Shown: positions 24,471-46,600 of the stretch, in pieces
How the letters are laid out: each line of letters starts with the position of its first letter
How positions within the stretch are numbered: the stretch's first letter is position 1
Assembly (NCBI GenBank): GCA_016748015.1
Contig: JAAOMT010000664.1
Location: 21,286-85,285, forward strand
Source: Geosiphon pyriformis
Taxonomy: Eukaryota; Glomeromycota; Glomeromycetes; Archaeosporales; Geosiphonaceae
Reading direction: 5' to 3'
Length of the DNA: 64,000 nucleotides
Program-made: the position numbers and the translations under genes
The notes under the pieces: model-generated
The model's input: only the letters and a program-made list of their open reading frames with translations
Told to the model about the DNA's origin: nothing
Databases searched by the model: none

Positions 24471-24856
24471 TAATATGCAATAAAAAATAACAATATTTTC
24501 CAAAATAATAATAATCAAATAACATTAAGGAAACATTATTAAATCATAAAATATTTACGTTGTAATTAAATATGTAATAGTTAAACTATACTCAATAAAG
24601 TATTTAAAAATATATATATGTATAATAATATATAGTTTTATTAATTTTACTTTAAGTTGAAAAACAAATTAAACAAATACAATTTGTATAATTAGATGCT
24701 GACAATTATGACCTACGAACGTGACAGGGAATGAAGATGGAGCTTACTACGTGTGACCAGCCACCCGAATGTTATTATTTTTGATATATTTGTTAATTAA
24801 AATAATTAATTTTATTATAGTAATTTATGTTGAAAATTTCGAATAAATATTTGATA
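21359..24856. other. A/T desert with triplet arrays
   Basis: About 3.5 kb with no supported gene. A long ATT array lies at about 21940-22032 and an AAT array at about 24406-24471. Between them the sequence is nearly pure A/T with scattered short runs. Short unique, less A/T-rich stretches occur next to ECO1 (about 21359-21500, probably its promoter) and at about 24690-24770, close to the TIR element. Confidence 0.6.
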
Positions 24857-24895
24857 TATGGGGCATACTGTAACAAAACCAGACAAAGTGAACAT
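24857..24895 (+). repeat. Left terminal inverted repeat
   Basis: 39 bp, starting TATGGGGCATACTG and ending GTGAACAT. It pairs with 32674-32712 with two differences (A/G and T/C). TA precedes it. Confidence 0.9.
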
Positions 24896-25676
24896 GCGTT
24901 GTGGCTTAGTGAGAGAGTGACGTTGCCTGAAAATTTTTTCGCAAATGCAAACAAAAAATAGTCGCGTCGTTTTTTAACCGCTGCATTCTTGCCGTGGCCA
25001 CGCTATATTCACCATCGCACAGTGATTCTCCTGTATCTGAGTTCTCCAACCCACTGCCAGTAGCACATTTATCTTTACAGCCAGGTAAATCAGCTTTTTT
25101 TTTTTTTTTTTTGACCGCCTATACTGTTTGGCATTTTGTGAACCGTTGCTTACCCCGCTACACCAACATTGAGGATCCTTTAACGTTAGTCTTCCGCATC
25201 CTGCGATCCATCTTTTGCATTTGCTTTTTCCTCTCGGAAGCTTTTTGCATGACTTCCCAAGTTAAGTAACTATTTTATAGTGTTTGTGACTTTTGGCATA
25301 CACAATATCCTACGGCACATATGGCCTACGTGCTTGTGAATCATCACTAGTGCTGCCCCATATGGTCGATGCTTGGGGGAGATTGTCATAACGCCCGTTA
25401 GGATCAGCCTAGCGCCCTAGTGTGCCTGCCTCTTTCCAGTATATTGGACTTAATAAGGTGTCCTACGGCACATATGGCCTACGTGCTTGTGAATCATCAC
25501 TAGTGCTGCCCCATATGGTCGATGCTTGGGGGAGGTTGTCATAACGCCCGTTAGGATCAGCCTAGCGCCCTAGTGTGCCTGCCTCTTTCCAGATGCCTAT
25601 TTTGTCAATGCCAATGTACTCCAATGAGTTATTAGCATTTTTACCAGGCCGTGATTATTAACTTAAATTATTTAAG
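24896..25676. other. 5' part of the TIR element, no firm coding exon
   Basis: It contains a 131-bp tandem repeat (listed separately) and a frame at 24994-25269 that begins with GTG, not ATG. That frame includes a poly-T-derived Phe run, so I do not call it. It may hold the promoter or a first exon of the plus-strand gene starting at 25677. Confidence 0.5.
25309..25592. repeat. 131-bp tandem repeat, two copies with 22-bp spacer
   Basis: Copies 25309-25439 and 25462-25592 begin CCTACGGCACATATGGCC and end GCCTCTTTCCAG. I see a single difference (GGGAGATT versus GGGAGGTT). The block is less A/T-rich than its surroundings. Each copy ends in CTTTCCAG, which looks like a splice acceptor, so the duplication could have doubled an intron end. 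Confidence 0.9.
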
Positions 25677-28268
25677 ATGGATATCACAAAAGCAGTTTTC
25701 TCTTATTTTCAGCAAAAACCTTACAAGGAGTGGCATCTAATTGGCTGTCTAGAATACTTAGAAGAAAAATGCTTGATCCTGAGATCATCAAGCAGACAAC
25801 AAATTCGTGATGAAATCCGAAGCCAAACACACTCTTTAATGTACCATCAATCTGTGTCTAAGGGCGCACAAGCAAAAGCTTCCACGCTGCACGATAACAT
25901 AAACAACTGTTTGAGATGGATGATGTATCTGCATTTTTCCAGAAGGTTGATGCAAAAGTAAGTTATTGTGTTGATGTTGATTAACTTTTCAATTCCATTA
26001 TGTTGAAACACTTTGGTTTACAGGCGCTTCAAATGGCTAAAGAACAGCTGTTGGGCGTCAAGAAGTCGCTATATAAAACAGAAGTCAAACTTGTTGTTGA
26101 AGATGATAAAATCCTGACTGTTTCATCTTCAGTAATTAATTATATTTATTTCTGAAAATGTTAATGATTCTCATATTTTTATGTTGTTCAATTGATATCG
26201 CATTGTCTGTCAATATAGAGAAAGCAGGAAATCTCAGAAACAGCCTTTTCTAACGAAGTTGAAAATGTCAGTCTTGAGGAGGAAGGGGGTCATAAGGTAG
26301 CTTTCTGCATACTCTCAGTCTTGAACTGAGAAACTTGCAATGATCGATCATATGCTAATATATGCGTCATCTAGGAAAAAGTTATTATTGCTCAAAGCGC
26401 AGATGACGCCATTGATAGCGGCGAAGATGAAGAAGAAGCGAAACAAGGAGAAGCTTCAGAGGTATGATTTTTTTTTCTGTGCATCTTGCTTTGTGGATAT
26501 TTATTCTCATTGCATAACGATAATGAATGATATCTTGTGGATATTGGTAACTAGGAGATGCAGGCACCGAACGAGGGCGAAAAGACGTCTGATTGCTATA
26601 AGTGTTTGTTTGAACAATTTGATGCCGCGAAGAAAACGGAAGCAATTGCGGAGTATTTATTTTTGCATACTATTTATTTACTTATTTCTCTTTTAAAGAA
26701 AAAAAAAGTTTAGTGCTCTTCTAATTTTATTATTTCATTTAGCCCTGTTTGGTGGCGCATTGCCGACCTAACGAATAGGAGCGAGCTCAATATTCCAGAT
26801 GAGCATTTTTACGCCTTACAAAAGGAAATTCATTCTCGTTTGAATGTCAAAATTTCGAAGACTGCGGAGACCTTGCTCACCGCACTTGCAAAGGTAATTA
26901 AAGACAGTTTCAAGATTACCAGTATTCCAGAGAGCGAGGATATCAAAATTACTGGGCTGAATTGATATCTAATAGCAACGTTTATAGCTGCCTCAAGATG
27001 AACTCGTTAGAATTGCTACATCTTTTTATGTTGATGGTAGCAAGCATGTTTTGGCACATTTATCATCGCTGCGGATCCCAAAACAAGTATCTACTGAAGA
27101 ACGATTGAACGCCTGGATCCTCGATATTGACTTGGCCGAGGAAACCGAGACTCTGACTGAACTTGCGAATTTGAAGTGCGATGATGGGGAAGTTGTGTGG
27201 ATATTCAAAGTAATTGCAAAGATGCAAGTATTGGTTTACGTTCTGTGGATCGACAATAGCAAATTTCTACACATGGGCTGCAGGTTCACTTAACTTTTAT
27301 TTTTATTCAAAACAGGTTCGAGAACCTTCAATATGGTATACCTGGAGAAGCATTGTCCGAAAGGGACATTGATGTTTTGTATTGCAGTGTGTTTTTTGAG
27401 ACTTTGAGAGATGTTGTAAGCGTTCACTTGTAAGTGTGTCTTCTTGATTACACTACACTGCTTTTGGGGTGCATTATCAACAATTTTTATATTCGATAGC
27501 GGTGAGATCTGTAGCCGAGCATCACGCGAGCGCAAACAACAAACGATAGATGCCTCTTCCGAAGGTTCTAAAGTCGATTGGTTGTTTTGCGTATGTATTA
27601 TCCCCCTTTTTTTTCGCTAGGTTACGCAATGTTATTTCTAACAATTAAGTAATTATTAGCATAGGCATTATGGCGAGAATTCGAAATGGGGCCGCGAATT
27701 CGGCTTGATGGAGAACTCTTCAATCAAACTTGATAATGACGCGAAAATTGCCGAAGATAAGATAAAAGGAATCCTGAATATGCGAGATATGCTTAAAGCG
27801 CTTAACCTCGCTCTCCCAAAAGAAGGCGTGTCTACCGCGATTGACCAGGCGCGGAAAAAGATTTTGCTGCCTGGTGTTCTTTTCCGCATGGAATTTCCGT
27901 ATCGTCGTGGTCACCATTCTCGAAAATTCGTGGGTCGGCATTGCGGACTTTAGTTCTTTCACAATCCCGACGAAAATCGATGATCTTTACATGGCCATCG
28001 ATTGTTGCCGTGTGCTCCTTGAACTGAAAGTGCGTCACGTTTTTGCGATTGTGTTTTGCTCTACTTATTTATATTAATGTCGTTCTTTGAATAGAGTCTC
28101 TTAAAGACTTCTGTTTCGGGCTTCGGGCTCGCGATCAAACACGCAAGTCGTCTGAGTCCCGAAGGAAAGAGGAGAAGATGGACGATAGAGCCCGGAGCGC
28201 CTATTGGGCTCATTCCGAAAAAAAAGAGGCTCCGAACTGCGTCGGCGAGCAAGGCAAAGAACGTCTAG
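25677..28268 (+). pseudogene. Spliced TIR-element gene of unknown function, frameshifted
   Basis: At least nine exons with GT-AG introns. The recognisable pieces in order are MDITKAVFSYFQQKP, FEMDDVSAFFQKVDAK, ALQMAKEQLLGVKKS, an acidic linker (DSGEDEEEAKQGEASE), SDCYKCLFEQFDAAK, PVWWRIADLTNRSEL, LPQDELVRIATSFY, FENLQYGIPGEALSERDID, SKVDWLF, EFGLMENSSIKL, KILLPGV, then FSSFTIPTKIDDL and a basic C-terminus with PKKKRLR ending in TAG. It uses TGG for Trp and the ordinary code. Two frame changes (about 25890-25925 and about 27870-27885) need an indel or an unseen mini-intron, so the copy is probably dead. A related gene lies at about 60465-61420 beside another TIR-like end. I associate this pattern with a large multicopy family in arbuscular mycorrhizal fungi; function unknown, and a nuclease role is speculative. 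Confidence 0.6.
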
Positions 28269-28770
28269 TTGGACTTATCCATTGTGGTCCGATTTCGCAT
28301 TTGCGACTACGGTCTTTTCTTCCTCTGATTTTTACCCTTTCCATATGGGGCTAACTACTCCCTTCCATCGGCTTTATAGGCTTTTGACTTATTTTGCAAT
28401 GGTACATATCGACTGAATGACATCTGTCCTGCACATGACGTGCCTAACCCCATCTGTCTCTCACACACACACAAACCATTCTAAAAAAAATCACAAAGTT
28501 ACAACGTAAATTTACTGTTGTAACACTAACTACAATGGTTACAGTGGCAGGGCCATCTGTTCCCCTACACATGAAAATTTCGCGCACTCGAACGCTTTTA
28601 TTACCATTTTACTACCATTTGCTAATTGATTAAACGATTGAATGGCTGGATCCGGATTCTCGACCCCGATGTAACAAATTTAAGTGTACAAGTTCTCGGA
28701 TAAAAATTTGGGCGTAAAGGAATAGCAAAGCGAAAGGCATCCATGGTTATCCCTCCATGTGACAACCCTC
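28269..28770. other. Non-coding spacer between the two halves of the TIR element
   Basis: No supported frame. Composition is less A/T-rich than the intergenic deserts, and a short CA run lies at about 28462-28475. It separates the ordinary-code gene from the TGA-as-Trp block. Confidence 0.5.
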
Positions 28771-29001
28771 TTAATCCTCTCTTTTTCTTTTCTTTCTTGG
28801 TTCTTGAGATGATTCCGCTAACGTCCGTTTAAGAACTTTTTCTTGCCTTTCCTCTTGGTAAATCTCGTAGGTAATTCCTTCCTTGTCTAAATATTGTTTA
28901 ACAGCTTTGGTGTCAGATATTTTAAAGATATATGGCGCAATCTTTTCGCCTTGCTCTTGCTTTAAAAGAGAACGTAAAGTACTATAATCTTTAGGCTCCA
29001 T
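28771..29001 (-). CDS. Small basic-tailed hypothetical protein
   Basis: 76 aa from ATG at 29001 (MEPKDYSTLRSLLKQEQG) to TAA. An in-frame upstream extension to 29049 exists. It has a charged helical middle and a basic C-terminus (EPRKKRKRED) resembling a nuclear localisation signal or DNA-binding tail. It is divergent from the transposase-like gene, with about 155 bp between starts. It contains no Trp codon, so it gives no information on the code used. Function unknown. Confidence 0.5.
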   Translation of the reverse strand: MEPKDYSTLRSLLKQEQGEKIAPYIFKISDTKAVKQYLDKEGITYEIYQEERQEKVLKRTLAESSQEPRKKRKRED

Positions 29002-29109
29002 AGTAGATCTAATATAGATAAGTTTCATATATTTCAATTTTATATACACGACTACCCCTATATATAATACTTAACTACATTTCAATTCCCCATAGAATTA
29101 GAAACTTTT

Positions 29110-29124
29110 ACAAAACCAGACAAA
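29110..29124 (+). repeat. Internal fragment of the terminal inverted repeat
   Basis: ACAAAACCAGACAAA is identical to bases inside both terminal repeats and lies just upstream of the transposase-like start at 29156. It could be a relic left end of an inner unit that shares the right end at 32712. Confidence 0.65.
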
Positions 29125-29155
29125 CTGCGTAAAAAATATATATATATATATATAT

Positions 29156-30910
29156 ATGGTAGACGACACAATTATTAATGAATACGAGAAAGCTCTCCAT
29201 TTCCTGGACGTAGGATGTGGCTGTGGCTGCTCCGCTAAGTTACCTAAAGAAGAATTTGCTGAACTACGAGAAGATTTTCAAGCGCTAACGAAACCCGAAC
29301 AAGACATTTTCTCAATGGCTCAACTCAGATCCATGGATGGGGGAGCGATCAGTACTAGCCGACGTCTCAAGAACAAGATTCGCGTCAATAAAAGAACTAT
29401 TTACTGCTGAAATCGTAATACCCCTATTTGTCAAAAAACTTACCTTAACATGCTCGGCATTGGCCGCAATTATTTTGAAAATATCAGAAATCATCTGCTA
29501 AAGGATGGTCTTCTACCACGGGTCCATGGTAATGTAAAAAGAATGCCACGGTGAAAAACTAAGATGGTCATCAATATTGACGTGGCTACCGCGGTCAAGA
29601 ATTTTTTGCTAAATTATGCTGAGGTCCATGGCTTGCCCAGCCCAGTCAGAAATGTTAATCGCGTGACTCAATCGATTATCTTCCTACCGGCAGAAATGAG
29701 CTACAAGTCTGTGCACCGTGATTTTTTGGCCGGCCTAGAAGAAAACAGTAAATTACGTGCCCTCAAATATGATGCGTTCCGCAAATTGTGGCATCAGCTA
29801 ACCCCGTACATTCAAATCATGAGCCCCCGAACCGACCTATGCGATACCTGTCAACAGTTGCGGAATGACTTGCAATTTAAAGCCCGTAAAGAAGAAGAGG
29901 CCCAAGACCTATTAAAGAAGTATAAAGAGCATCTAGCCAAAGCCAAGCTAGAGCGAAACTATTATAACCAAAATACCAAGTTAGCGGAAGAACATAGAAA
30001 GCTCGTCAACCAGAATTATTCTGTTGTTTCAGTGAAAGGCGAAATACCATACTGCAGCACGGACGCTATTGCTCACTACAGTTATGACTGAGCCCAAAAT
30101 GTTCATGTACCTCATTCAGATCAACAAATCGGCAAAGTGTATTACCTTAGTGCTCGCAAGGTGCACTTGTTTGGTATCCAGAATGAGGCGGTCCGCGAGC
30201 AAATTAATTATGTGCTGGATGAGAACGAACTTCTCGGAAAGGGTCCGAATGGTACGCTAAGCCTGGTCTTTGATGGAATTAAGCAATTGAATAAAGGTGA
30301 GAAGCACTTGAAAGTCACTTGCGACAATGCGGGAGGGCAAAACAAAAACAACACCACTATTTGGTTTTATTTGTATTTGGTAATTGCTGGCTATTATGAA
30401 AGCATTGAACTCAACTTTATGGTTCCAGGTCATACCAAATTCAAATGTGATGGTAGTTTTGGTCTGATTAAAAGACTTTATCGTAATACCACGGTAGATT
30501 GTGTAGATCATGTGGTAGAGGTGGTAAAGAGGTCCAGTATTGCGGGATTAAACAAAGCTCGGCGTTATAATGGTAGAGAAGGTTTTCAATATCTCGACAT
30601 CATAAGTGGTTTGGAGACTTACTTTAAAAGGCTTCCTGGTCTGCAAAGGTTTCAGCATTTCCTTTTCACCAGTGCCAACCCAGGTGTGGTCCAAGCTCAA
30701 GAAGTGGCTAATGGCCCTTTCCAGGAATTCAAGCTACTGAAAACAAGTAAACTCGAGGCTGCAAAGATCATACAAAAAACCAAGGCTTTATCATTTCCAG
30801 TGCTAACGCCGCCTCCGATGAAATGTGAACGACAAGAATATCTTTACAATTTTATTCGTCCATTTGTTAGAGATGAATTTAAAGATATTACTTGTCCAAG
30901 ACCAACCTAA
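29156..30910 (+). CDS. Transposase-like protein, three in-frame TGA read as Trp
   Basis: One frame of 585 codons from ATG at 29156 to TAA. It is interrupted only by TGA at 29408, 29552 and 30089; read as Trp these give YCWNRN, MPRWKTK and YDWAQN. Two TGG are also present (KLWHQL, TTIWFY). The family is recognised from CGCGCSAKL with LPKEEFAELR, TYLNMLGIGRNYFENIR, LLPRVHGN, TDLCDTCQQLRNDL (a Cys pair), DWAQNVHVPHSDQQIG, YYLSARKVHLFGI, LKVTCDNAGGQNKNN, FMVPGHTKFKCDG and MKCERQEYLYNFIRPF. I know this layout from abundant metazoan repeat proteins with an RNase H-like (DDE-type) core, close to DUF7869. The Asp of CDNAGGQNKN is a likely catalytic residue. Under the ordinary code it would be a pseudogene with three stops. 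Frame and length are otherwise intact. Confidence 0.75.
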
Positions 30911-31034
30911 CCTATACTGGCAATGAACAAAACATTTAGAGAATCAATCGTCACTCGTTAATCTTTCAACTAATATCGATATTGCTAGCTTTTTAAAGCT
31001 AAAATAATATATATACTTAATATAATAAAAAATC
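30911..31034. other. Spacer with a short AT-rich hairpin
   Basis: 124 bp between two plus-strand frames. The near-palindrome TAGCTTTTTAAAGCTA at about 30988-31003 could form a small hairpin, followed by an A/T run. Whether it ends transcription is unknown. No purine-rich ribosome-binding site precedes the next ATG. Confidence 0.4.
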
Positions 31035-31967
31035 ATGACAAACATCCCAGAACTATTAAACGAAATAGAAGCATTAAAAAATCAATTAGCCGATAAAGAC
31101 CAACAACTCCAACAAGCCGAAGAAAATCTTAAATTCAGAATTTGAAAGTCTATTCATAGAACTCTTGAAAATTCAGAAAGTAGTATTCATTTAATGCTAT
31201 TAAAAAGATTTACCTGACCTGAAAAAGGCTGAGTAAGTAGTAAGAGTGGAGAACTTAATAGTTTAGATAGATATTTAGATGTATTTGGAGATGAACGAGT
31301 ATTTAAACATTATGCTGTTTTTAGCAAAGATTTCACTGTTGAGAATTTTATCAAAGACATTAACGAAAAAATGAGAAGTCAAGAAGAAAGTTATAACATT
31401 TCCTTTAGAGGTTATCAGTTTTTAGAAGGTCAATTAAAAGAAAAAATTGCAGATTTAGAAAAGGAAATTGAAGAGAAAAATCAAGAGTTAGAAAAGGTGT
31501 TGGAAAGGAATGAACTTCTTGTTAAGAATTTAGAAAAAGAACTTGAATTTTACAAAGAAACTGCTAATTGTAATTTAGATGCTATTGGAGTTTGTGAAGA
31601 TTGATGTAATGATCGACATGCTGAAGAAGTGGAAGAACTAAAAGAAGAAATTGATAATAAGCAAACTTCGTTACAAGAATGTTTTGATGAATACATAAAG
31701 CAAGATAGAAAATTAAGAATATCTGAAAAATGATTGGCAGAAAGCCAACAAAAATTGAAAGAAGGTCGGGAGGAAGGATTGAAAAAAGATGAGAAAATAA
31801 AAATTCTAGAGCAACAATTATGTCTTACTAATAAACCTTTACCTAAAAAACCAAATAGAATTAAGTTATTCGGAGAGAAAATAAAAACCAAATTCCAACA
31901 ACTTACACAAAAAAAAAATTTTCAAAAACAACCATTTGTTGCTAAAGTAGAAGTTCCAACTAAGTAA
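31035..31967 (+). CDS. Coiled-coil protein, five in-frame TGA read as Trp
   Basis: One frame of 310 codons from ATG (MTNIPELLNEIEALKNQLAD) to TAA. TGA occurs at 31143, 31215, 31230, 31602 and 31731; there is no TGG and no internal TAA or TAG. Read as Trp they give FRIWKS, FTWPEKGW, CEDWCND and SEKWLAE. The rest is mostly heptad-type coiled coil (LEKEIEEKNQELEKVLERNE) with a basic C-terminus. I know no family for it. Codons are very A/T-rich (AGA, AAA, TTA, GAA), more so than in the transposase-like gene. This is the pattern of a gene from a Mollicute or a mitochondrion. In the ordinary code only a 77-residue fragment would be open. Confidence 0.65.
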
Positions 31968-31976
31968 TTTGTCTTT

Positions 31977-32639
31977 ATGAGAGAATTACTTTACACAATT
32001 TTAGAATTGGAGGATTGATACAGAAATCGTGCTCGATGTGGGTTTTGCACCACTCTTTTTAGTGATGAAGATATAGCTGTTTGCCAAATTAGAACACGGA
32101 GCAAAGTAACTCATAGAATAGTTGCTAATGATTTTGTTTGTGAAAACTGTAAGGACAAATTCGAGAATGATGAATTACCGAAATGTGTGAGATGTGGGAG
32201 ATTAAAGAACAAGTCAGATATCGATGCTGCCACTGGTAAATATATTTGTCGTTGTATCGAGCGCGGAGAAGTTTTGGAAAAAGAGGATTTGCCAGTTTTA
32301 CCTCATCAAAGAAATGAGGCAATCTTTTATGAAGAACAGATAAACAATCTACAAGAAAAGTTAAATACCGCTGAAACAGAAATAGACACGCACTTGGAAG
32401 CGTTAGAAATCTCTGAAGACTGGCACAAAAGACAAAAGCAGGAACTTTTAGATAGAATTAAAGAATTGGAATTTGAAGTCGAAAGATTAAAAAAACTAAC
32501 TCCTCAAGAACTGGTTAATGAAATAGAATCTTATAAGGAAGAGGTGGCTCAATTAAAATCTCAATTAGAAAAATTAAATTCTCAACAGAAGGCTCAAATT
32601 GAAGTTAAAAAGTGACCTTGATTGAAAATAAGGAAGTAA
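31977..32639 (+). CDS. Cys-rich plus coiled-coil protein, three in-frame TGA read as Trp
   Basis: One frame of 220 codons from ATG 9 bp after the previous stop to TAA. TGA occurs at 32016, 32613 and 32619 and one TGG is present (EDWHKR). The N-terminal third has Cys pairs (RCGFC, VCENCKDKF, KCVRCGRL, YICRC) that could bind two zinc ions. The C-terminal two thirds is a coiled coil (LNTAETEIDTHLEALE, LKSQLEKLNSQQK) ending WPWLKIRK. Tight spacing and the same TGA habit link it to the upstream frame as a two-gene unit. It ends 34 bp before the right terminal repeat. Function unknown. Confidence 0.62.
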
Positions 32640-32673
32640 TTAAAGAAATTAAAAGATACCCGAGTAATGTCAG

Positions 32674-32712
32674 ATGTTCACTTTGTCTGGTTTTGTTGCA
32701 GCATGCCCCATA
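32674..32712 (-). repeat. Right terminal inverted repeat
   Basis: Inverted partner of 24857-24895. Read on the minus strand it starts TATGGGGCATGCTG. TA follows it on the plus strand. It lies only 34 bp after the stop of the last TGA-rich frame. Confidence 0.9.
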
Positions 32713-33010
32713 TAATATATACGTTTAAATCAAATTATTGAAAGCTATTTATTTAAATTATAAAATGCTTTAAAAAATTAGTTTCTAATAAAAATTAATA
32801 TTAAATTAATTAATTTAATTTGTATATTAATATATATATTATAAACCTGAATAAATTATTTTTATTATAAATAATATTACAACTATTTAAGTTGGTTTAT
32901 GAATTTTTTAAATTTCACAAATTTTAGCTAAAACTAATTGTTTCATTGTTCGATATATATTAATTACATAAAAAACTGTATGGAAATGCTGATCGTCAAG
33001 ATAGTAATTA
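32713..33010. other. A/T-rich flank of the TIR element
   Basis: About 300 bp, nearly all A/T, with no coding signal. It starts with the TA that may be the target-site duplicate. Confidence 0.5.
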
Positions 33011-45770: not shown

Positions 45771-46600
45771 TTATTTGTTTTCCAACGTTTCTATTAGGTC
45801 ATATGTTCTTTTCAGCAATGTTTTTTGAAAGTTTTCCTCTGTTATTGGTTTAGCTGGATATGTATTAATTTCTCTTTCTACTGGTAACGTTGCTATTCTT
45901 CCATATACTAATTTAAATGGTGTTGCTTGTGTAGTATCCTGTTTCATTGTCCAATAAGCAAATAGTACTAATAGTATAAACAAATCCCAATTGTTCTGGT
46001 TTTCTTGGCTGAGCTTGGCTATTGCTTTACACAATATTCTGTTGAATCTTTCTACTAATCCGTTGGTTTATGGATGGTATGGTGATGATAATGGTCTCTT
46101 GATTCCAAATCTTTGGCTCAATTCTGTTAATGTTCTGTTCACAAAATGAGTTCCTTGGTCTGATAATAATTCTTTTGGACATCCATGTCGACAAATCAAA
46201 TCCTGATAAACAAATTCGGCAACGGATTCTGCATCCGCTCTTTGAATTGCTTTTGCCTCTGGCCATTTAGTGAGATAGTCCATAGCTACTGCTATGTATC
46301 TGTTTTCTCTGCTGGTGATTGTTAATGGTCCAACTAAATCAATTCCTATATGGTCAAATAGTTGTCCCACTTTGATTGGTCTTAATGGTTCACTGGATCT
46401 TGTTCCTCTTTTTTGCTGACAAGCATCACAATTTTGAACATATTGAATGATGTCTGGGTACATTAATGGCCAATAGTATCTTTTTCTAGTTCTTTCCATG
46501 ATTGCTTTTTTGTGAAAATGTCCTGCTGTTGGATTTGAGTACATGTTGAATAATATTGTTTCTTTTTCTGGCTCCGTAATTACTCTGGTTGGTTGATCTG
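45771..46600 (-). pseudogene. Integrase domain of the LTR element
   Basis: Zinc-binding HHCC part (GHFHKKAIMERTRKRYYW, then CDACQQ) followed by the DDE core: GIDLVGPLT (first Asp), LLSDQGTHFVN (second Asp) and GLVERFNRILCKA (Glu). One stop (TAA) falls between YHP and TNG, where Gln is usual. The catalytic triad itself is intact. The enzyme would insert the cDNA into host DNA. Confidence 0.75.

What the first reader, a model, noticed from the sequence alone, without database searches (positions are those of the whole stretch)
29156..32639. Three neighbouring genes readable only if TGA means Trp, inside a fungal DNA element
Three plus-strand frames (585, 311 and 221 codons including stop) contain 11 in-frame TGA (29408, 29552, 30089; 31143, 31215, 31230, 31602, 31731; 32016, 32613, 32619), no internal TAA or TAG, and all end in TAA. 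One frame has no TGG at all. Decayed retroelements in the same window carry all three stop types, and the host receptor gene ends in TGA. TGA as Trp is known for Mollicutes and many fungal mitochondria. Arbuscular mycorrhizal fungi host Mollicute-related endobacteria, so a cassette that came from, or serves, such a partner is a real possibility. Gene transfer direction is unknown.
Basis: partly seen in the sequence, partly recalled or inferred. Interest (0 to 1): 0.95.

Follow-up and report, generated by a model that had tools for sequence, protein, structure and literature searches.

The report
Fungal transposon genes with TGA-as-tryptophan code
A family of jumping genes in a fungal chromosome carries genes that make sense only if the stop signal TGA is read as the amino acid tryptophan, although the fungus itself uses TGA as a stop; this suggests that these genes live or lived in another translation system, perhaps bacteria that dwell inside the fungus.

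Summary
Confirmed and enlarged. The three frames and 11 in-frame TGA are exact. They form the 3' half of a 7,850-bp DNA transposon (24860-32709) with 36-bp terminal inverted repeats and an ATAT target-site duplication. ORF1 (DUF7869) has 34 further matches in the same genome. In 20 fetched copies plus the window, 52 of 62 ORF1 TGA codons fall in its five Trp-majority columns, where TGA and TGG interchange (52:37), with at least 10 switches on the tree. An accessory HAD-like gene shows the same (45:14); three smaller families agree on less data. Genes in the 5' half of sister elements (Crinkler, fungal kinases) use TGG (33:1, mostly single copies). The host ends genes with TGA (7 of 33); only tRNA-Trp(CCA) was found. 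Decay and misassembly explain this poorly: TGA means Trp where these proteins evolved. Best reading: they evolve in a TGA=Trp resident of the fungus, most plausibly Mollicutes-related endobacteria, and enter the nucleus by transposition. That home is not shown: no bacterial homologue was found, with weak searches. Decoding in the fungus is the main rival.

The parts
24860..32709 (.). Whole transposon, 7,850 bp
   Evidence: Terminal inverted repeats with 34 of 36 bases identical, and flanking ATAT on both sides
24856..24859 (.). Left copy of the 4-bp target-site duplication (ATAT)
   Evidence: 4-bp duplications also in L010, L020, L024 and in L014 by eye (flanks); not in L023
24860..24895 (+). 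Left terminal inverted repeat, begins GGGGC
24900..28700 (.). 5' half in this copy: no intact gene recognised; a short similarity of 27660-27953 to an open frame in L010 was noted by eye only; sister elements L024 and L023 have Crinkler or fungal kinase genes here
   Evidence: 0 Pfam families for 27660-27950, L024 PF20147 2e-18 and L023 PF17667 1.2e-13
28771..29049 (-). Small conserved gene, 92 aa, basic C-terminal stretch RKKRK like a nuclear localisation signal (judged by eye), no Trp
   Evidence: Similar stretches in 19 of the other 25 loci searched; RKKRK in 7 of the 18 ends listed; sequence
29110..29127 (+). Internal copy of the terminal-repeat core just upstream of ORF1
   Evidence: the same motif near the ORF1 start in L009, L010, L012, L013, L027, L028
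29156..30910 (+). ORF1, 584 aa, DUF7869 protein, probable DDE-type transposase; 3 TGA, 2 TGG
   Evidence: PF25273 E=4.5e-16, residues 335-512; the transposase role is inferred from conserved acidic motifs read by eye and from its place between terminal repeats, not from a fold (off)
31035..31967 (+). ORF2, 310 aa, coiled-coil-like protein; 5 TGA, 0 TGG
   Evidence: no Pfam family over its cut-off
31977..32639 (+). ORF3, 220 aa, Cys-rich N-terminus and coiled-coil-like C-terminus; 3 TGA, 1 TGG; starts 9 nt after ORF2 ends
   Evidence: relatives in L009, L010, L013, L027, L028
32674..32709 (-). Right terminal inverted repeat
32710..32713 (.). Right copy of the 4-bp target-site duplication (ATAT)

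Best explanation
Shown: the block is the 3' half of a terminal-inverted-repeat DNA transposon of a multicopy family in this genome, and in ORF1 and the HAD-like accessory gene (with less data in ORF2, ORF3 and HIT genes) TGA is a sense codon for Trp. The host, and as far as tested the genes of the 5' half, use the standard code. Inferred: the TGA genes evolve under selection in a translation system that reads UGA as Trp at no visible cost, most plausibly Mollicutes-related endobacteria in the fungal cytoplasm. The element lives there, ORF1 (a probable transposase) is made there, and with accessory proteins, one of them perhaps carrying a nuclear localisation signal, it inserts copies into fungal chromosomes with 4-bp duplications. 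In the nucleus the TGA genes would be read only as truncated proteins and decay, while the standard-code Crinkler or kinase genes in the other half could be expressed by the fungus.
For: TGA/TGG exchange at Trp columns: ORF1 52:37 in 5 columns, all five with TGG in some copies; HAD-like 45:14 in 8 columns, five of them with TGG. Share of TGA among Trp codons (ORF1 0.55; ORF2 0.88, ORF3 0.83, HAD 0.71, HIT set 0.80 in 3, 4, 3 and 4 chosen frames) lies within or near the range of other A/G-ending codon pairs. None of the 42 ends listed for ORF1, ORF3 and HAD is TGA. Purifying selection under table 4: dN/dS 0.05-0.25 in the pairs printed with a value among 13 copies. Host: TGA inside 4 of 146 kinase and 4 of 95 carrier matches, TGA as first stop in 7 of 33 host ends. 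5' genes of sister elements 33 TGG, 1 TGA in Trp columns (see limits in the full report). No near-identical copies: nearest neighbours 73-94% identical among 20 sequences, as repeated entries from a diverse reservoir would give, though old amplification in the nucleus could too. Endobacteria of these fungi are Mollicutes with 29-33% GC (PMC11423566, section read in part) that exchange genes with hosts (PMC10507103, passages); the accessory genes have GC 0.30-0.35.
Against: No bacterial homologue found: genome contigs, viral contigs, plasmids, phages; but pattern scans used Trp-containing peptides, probably written with TGG only, and it is unknown whether endobacterial genomes are held. No clear Shine-Dalgarno motif before the starts (by eye). 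GC3 of ORF1 (0.29-0.41) and of accessory genes (0.22-0.28) overlaps or lies near host genes (0.25-0.34), so composition does not single out a bacterium. PF25273 gave no match in the 14 prokaryote control genomes. That the host is an arbuscular mycorrhizal fungus was not tested.
Confidence: 0.5

Rival explanations
1. The genes are expressed in the fungus itself: in some life stage or cell state the cytosol reads UGA as Trp (an unseen tRNA, a modified tRNA-Trp, or efficient readthrough), and the transposon multiplies in the nucleus by this recoded transposase.
For: All copies known are in the fungal genome; terminal repeats and target-site duplications show transposition into it; standard-code fungal genes sit in sister elements; the small conserved gene ends in a basic, NLS-like stretch; GC3 overlaps that of host genes.
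Against: UGA is an ordinary stop in host genes (7 of 33 first stops), so a cost on TGA would be expected, yet TGA is about as common as other A-ending codons. Two tRNA-Trp genes found, both CCA (in 20 of 60 listed tRNA places fetched; one search finds the same two), with 5-bp anticodon stems read by eye; the UCA pattern is no commoner than its control (72 against 94), and ARAGORN called none of the 20 best candidates a tRNA. A tRNA that has an intron, is unusual or was not assembled would be missed.
Confidence: 0.25
2. The genes came from some other TGA=Trp system: fungal mitochondria, or another organism with that code such as a protist.
For: The code evidence does not name the donor; UGA and UGG both encode Trp in fungal mitochondria (stated in PMC10470734, passage).
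Against: Glomeromycotinian mitoviruses rarely use UGA (PMC10470734, PMC6316171, passages), which the latter links to rare use in host mitochondria; a DUF7869 element is not known to me from mitochondria (recalled). No mitochondrial gene to test: COX1 gave no match in the assembly.
Confidence: 0.15
3. Messenger RNA editing of UGA to UGG (A-to-I) restores Trp.
For: Trp columns are the ones affected.
Against: Editing would serve UAG as well, but there are 0 TAG among 91 cells of the ORF1 Trp columns and none in the Trp columns of the four accessory families.
Confidence: 0.03
4. Decayed pseudogenes or RIP-like mutation that happened to leave only TGA.
For: Some copies are plainly decayed, with TAA and TAG (L027, L011, L022); 14 of 35 DUF7869 matches hold TAA or TAG; frameshifts split many copies.
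Against: 10 of 20 fetched copies lack TAA/TAG in the aligned ORF1 codons; in columns rich in CGA, CAA or CAG there are 67 CGA and 0 TGA; dN/dS 0.05-0.25.
Confidence: 0.02
5. Misassembly or contamination joined foreign sequence to fungal contigs.
For: Endobacterial contigs do occur in fungal assemblies (PMC11423566, section read in part).
Against: Matches on 34 contigs; 4-bp duplications at 5 of 6 elements examined (for four, L014 by eye).
Confidence: 0.03

Closest known systems
Terminal-inverted-repeat (DDE) DNA transposons of eukaryotes
   Same: Terminal inverted repeats, 4-bp target-site duplications, multicopy family, transposase-like gene
   Different: The main gene and accessory genes need TGA=Trp in a standard-code host; the superfamily could not be assigned (DUF7869, no fold available)
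Mitoviruses and phages with alternative codes
   Same: Mobile elements whose genes use a code other than the standard one; UGA or UGG for Trp in mitoviruses (PMC6316171, passage); phages with reassigned UAG (abstract)
   Different: Here a DNA transposon in nuclear chromosomes, with standard-code genes in sister elements; no suppressor tRNA in the window or in the 20 copy loci
Gene exchange between Mollicutes-related endobacteria and Mucoromycota
   Same: Candidate partner with TGA=Trp (recalled for Mollicutes); fungal genes in endobacteria (PMC10507103, passages)
   Different: Transfer here would run from endobacterium to nucleus and by transposition; none was described in the passages read
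Crinkler (CRN/CR) effector genes linked to transposons
   Same: Crinkler N-terminal domain and kinase genes inside sister elements; links of such genes to transposons reviewed in PMC5289972 (passages)
   Different: Not described with TGA=Trp genes in the same element in what the listed searches showed

Membership tests
TIR DNA transposon | Terminal inverted repeats at both ends | tested here: met
   34 of 36 bases in the window, 35 of 36 in L010
TIR DNA transposon | Target-site duplication | tested here: met
   ATAT in window, L010, L020; AATT in L024; ATAT in L014 by eye because of a 1-base insertion in its repeat; not in L023 (2 bp)
TIR DNA transposon | DDE (RNase H-like) transposase | tested here: inconclusive
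   PF25273 only; structure prediction switched off; no solved relative (best E 0.19)
Gene set under NCBI table 4 (TGA=Trp) | TGA aligned with TGG Trp in relatives | tested here: met
   ORF1 and HAD; thin for ORF2, ORF3 and HIT, where 2 of 4, 1 of 5 and 0 of 3 Trp columns hold a TGG
Gene set under NCBI table 4 (TGA=Trp) | TGA not used as terminator | tested here: met
   0 of 42 listed ends in ORF1, ORF3, HAD, from 24, 6 and 8 loci; found with code-4 alignments, which can read past a TGA
Host nuclear code changed to TGA=Trp | TGA absent as stop and present as Trp in host genes | tested here: not met
   7 of 33 first stops are TGA; TGA inside 4 of 146 kinase matches; but 0 of 18 stops in a set of mostly related kinases
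Mollicutes-related endobacterial genes | Homologues in endobacterial genomes | tested here: inconclusive
   None found, searches weak for TGA-coded Trp; presence of these genomes in the collection unknown
Mollicutes-related endobacterial genes | AT-rich composition, TGA much commoner than TGG | tested here: inconclusive
   Accessory genes GC 0.30-0.35 and TGA share 0.71-0.88, but ORF1 0.55 and host genes overlap in GC3

The most novel reading that the evidence does not exclude
A two-code transposon that moves between an endosymbiont and its host: genes in one half are written for a bacterium that reads UGA as Trp and make the transposition proteins there, genes in the other half (Crinkler, fungal kinases) are written for the fungal nucleus, and the element has entered fungal chromosomes many times from a diverse bacterial reservoir.
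Probability: 0.35. Interest if true: 0.97.

Novelty: categorically new. Interest (0 to 1): 0.88.

Why it matters
A nuclear transposon family whose proteins need another genetic code than that of its host means either that a second decoding of UGA exists in the fungus or that transposition crosses from an endosymbiont (or another TGA=Trp source) into the nucleus. Either would be a new route or rule of gene flow, and both can be tested directly with RNA, peptides and endobacterial genomes. It also warns that standard-code gene finders will break or miss such genes.

Tried and rejected
Rejected: decay or RIP (67 CGA and 0 TGA in columns rich in CGA, CAA or CAG); A-to-I editing (no TAG in Trp columns); a host-wide code change. 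Large open frames of 1036-1163 aa listed were seen to be runs of N in the pieces fetched.

Led nowhere: scans of genome contigs and viral contigs with ORF1 and HAD alignments, terminal-repeat pattern in viral contigs, plasmids and phages, PHROGs (weak hits only, the best 1.8e-5 for HIT to a family of unknown function), solved structures, COX1 for the mitochondrial code. Composition did not separate bacterium from host. My notebook gives 5 kinase and 5 carrier matches with TGA; a recount gives 4 of 146 and 4 of 95.

Weak points: the codon columns come from tblastn under code 4, which favours Trp at TGA; the test uses only sense codons of the other copies for column identity, but on that same alignment, and it treats related copies as independent. 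Accessory Trp columns were called from TGA and TGG together; TGG occurs in 5 of 8 HAD, 2 of 4 ORF2, 1 of 5 ORF3 and 0 of 3 HIT columns. TGA outside Trp columns: ORF1 10, HAD 15, ORF2 7 (as many as inside), ORF3 4, HIT 1. Only 20 copies were fetched in full, out of 52 matches: the top 18 places or so and two further ones with ORF3. The 5' control rests on one gene with two copies (16 TGG, 1 TGA, 1 TAG) and on single-copy frames chosen as open in the standard code, for which TGG only is partly by construction; its L014 query also overlapped the start of ORF1, before the first Trp column, so that the Trp count is not touched. Host stop counts include ends that may lie in introns.
Full report
Observation. 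The three frames, their lengths, the 11 TGA positions, the absence of internal TAA/TAG, the TAA ends and the lack of TGG in the second frame are all as described. The chance of no TAA/TAG at local base composition is 4.5e-10, 1.1e-5 and 2.9e-4.

The element. Inverted repeats lie at 24848-24895 and 32674-32721. Trimmed to the shared ends they give a 7,850-bp element, 24860-32709, that begins GGGGC at both ends, 34 of 36 bases alike, with ATAT on both sides. A core of the repeat also lies just upstream of ORF1 in the window and near the ORF1 start in L009, L010, L012, L013, L027 and L028.

The family. A DNA search of the window's own genome (124.7 Mb, 406 contigs) gave 52 matches on 34 contigs, all but the window's own at most 89% identical. 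The DUF7869 model (ORF1, E=4.5e-16) gave 35 matches, the window's own included: 15 with TGA and no TAA/TAG inside, 6 with no stop, 14 with TAA/TAG, of which 3 have no TGA. I fetched 20 copies and later five smaller pieces.

TGA means Trp. At the 11 window sites, 71 aligned cells in the copies hold 46 TGA, 17 TGG, 1 Arg, 6 other sense codons and 1 TAA/TAG. ORF1 has five Trp-majority columns, each with both codons: 52 TGA, 37 TGG, 1 Gly, 1 TAA, 0 TAG of 91 cells; ten other TGA are single cells in ten other columns. When the identity of a column is taken from the sense codons of the other copies alone, 52 of 62 TGA fall on Trp (P about 2e-106, cells treated as independent), against 1 of 36 TAA and 0 of 11 TAG, among 11,056 cells. 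In the 11 sequences without TAA/TAG (window and 10 copies) 33 of 35 TGA fall on Trp. On a tree made without these columns at least 10 TGA/TGG switches are needed. Trp columns of the other genes: HAD-like 45 TGA, 14 TGG, 5 TAA, 13 other in 8 columns (11 loci); ORF3 20, 1, 0, 4 in 5 columns (6 loci); ORF2 7, 2, 0, 2 in 4 columns (4 loci); HIT 6, 0, 0, 1 in 3 columns (3 loci). TGG is present in 5, 1, 2 and 0 of these columns, so that ORF3 and HIT add little on their own. Outside Trp columns these families hold 15, 4, 7 and 1 TGA; for ORF2 that is as many as inside. A genome search with the HAD-like protein gave 35 matches: 10 with TGA only, 21 with TGA and TAA/TAG, 3 with TAA/TAG only, 1 with none.

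No visible cost of TGA. Share of TGA among Trp codons: ORF1 0.55 (all aligned cells of 21 sequences), ORF2 0.88, ORF3 0.83, HAD 0.71, HIT set 0.80 (3, 4, 3 and 4 chosen frames); share of the A-ending codon in Lys, Glu, Gln, Leu and Arg pairs is 0.59-0.79 in ORF1 and 0.61-1.0 in the others. Ends: ORF1 23 TAA, 1 TAG (24 loci); ORF3 7 TAA, 1 TAG (6 loci, two with a second, weaker hit); HAD 10 TAA (8 loci); no TGA. Under table 4, dN/dS among 13 copies runs from 0.05 to 0.25 in the pairs printed with a value; several window pairs had saturated dS. So the proteins were kept by selection under this code. Nearest neighbours among 20 sequences are 73.4 to 93.6% identical: no fresh duplicates among those fetched.

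The host reads TGA as stop. TGA lies inside 4 of 146 kinase matches, 4 of 95 mitochondrial carrier matches, 1 of 12 myosin matches and 6 of 48 Ras matches, which are short exons read on into introns (4 of the 6 also hold TAA or TAG). First stops after the domain: 11 TAA, 7 TAG, 0 TGA in 18 of 20 kinases, most of them paralogues; 18 TAA, 8 TAG, 7 TGA in 33 of 35 carrier, Ras and myosin ends, of which some may lie in introns but five TGA follow plausible tails of 3 to 26 residues. Of 60 tRNA places listed 20 were fetched; two are tRNA-Trp, both CCA, with normal 5-bp anticodon stems by eye, and a DNA search finds the same two. A UCA-anticodon pattern gave 72 matches against 94 for its reversed control; the 20 passing a simple stem filter were fetched, and ARAGORN called none. 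52 of the 72 were not examined, and intron-containing tRNAs would be missed. A stricter pattern gave 1 match against 1. No tRNA lies in the window; in the 20 copy loci one tRNA-Gly only.

A control inside the elements. The 5' half of sister elements holds fungal-type genes: a Crinkler N-terminal domain (PF20147, 2e-18) and a kinase in L024, a fungal kinase (PF17667, 1.2e-13) in L023, and an unclassified 443-aa frame in L020. Trp columns there: 33 TGG, 1 TGA, 1 TAG, 1 other. Most of these genes have one copy only, and the frames were chosen as open under the standard code, so that this control is much weaker than the ORF1 count; the one gene with two copies gives 16 TGG, 1 TGA, 1 TAG. It fits a two-code element but does not prove it. 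In the window no intact gene was recognised in this half.

Accessory genes. Besides ORF2 and ORF3 I saw a HAD-like family (DWDEC and DFDIFIDD motifs, my reading; no Pfam hit for L107 and L023, only a weak one for L012), HIT-domain proteins (PF01230, 2.5e-7 and 9.3e-7) and unclassified proteins with many TGA (L025 5408-6070: 9 TGA, 1 TGG). ORF3 starts 9 nt after ORF2 ends. A small gene (28771-29049) recurs in 19 of 25 other loci, with RKKRK near the end in 7 of 18 ends listed.

Mechanism. Acceptance of TGA, selection under table 4 and a host in which TGA is a stop point to proteins that evolve outside the ordinary fungal cytosol. Mollicutes-related endobacteria fit: Mollicutes read UGA as Trp (recalled, established), live in the fungal cytoplasm (recalled), have GC of 29-33% in the recovered assemblies (PMC11423566, section 3 part 1), are diverse and exchange genes with their hosts (PMC10507103, PMC13315312, passages). 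Glomeromycotinian mitoviruses rarely use UGA, which speaks against mitochondria (PMC10470734, PMC6316171, passages). No bacterial homologue was found; pattern scans probably wrote Trp as TGG only. Against this home stand the lack of a clear Shine-Dalgarno motif and composition that overlaps the host's.

Literature. Searches for UGA-Trp transposons, DUF7869, alternative codes with transposable elements, endobacteria with transposons, and Crinkler with transposons (listings and abstract starts seen, passages of eleven papers, one section of PMC11423566) showed no description of such elements. The library holds open-licence papers only, and the two 2015 PNAS papers on endobacterial genomes were not held. 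In the passages I read, the TE surveys of Rhizophagus irregularis (PMC8647823, PMC11075540) do not mention it.

Verdict. The code finding is about as firm as sequence alone allows for ORF1 and the HAD-like gene (I put TGA=Trp at 0.95). Where it is read is open: endobacterium 0.5, fungus 0.25, other TGA=Trp source 0.15.

Noticed in passing
L027 (G000:C220:114000-123500), ORF1 copy: This copy has 18 TAA outside Trp columns in 445 aligned codons; pooled over copies TAA lies opposite CAA in the window 12 times. Probably AT-biased decay, but a CAA-to-TAA excess was not examined.
   Followed up: no
L024 1656-7309, L023 1122-7432, L020 218-7085, L014 2503-8228: Crinkler (L024), fungal kinase (L024, L023) and, by eye, nuclease-kinase-like (L014) genes lie inside the same inverted-repeat elements, so the elements may spread effector-type genes in the fungus.
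   Followed up: partly
G000:C402 and C271: Many tyrosine-kinase-like genes share a C-terminus and end in TAA or TAG, never TGA in the 18 ends read; most of those sampled look like paralogues.
   Followed up: partly
window 46068-46544: Integrase (rve, PF00665, 4e-12) of a retroelement, minus strand.
   Followed up: no
window 25308-25439 and 25461-25592: Two 132-bp direct copies, 99% identical, inside the 5' half of the element.
   Followed up: no
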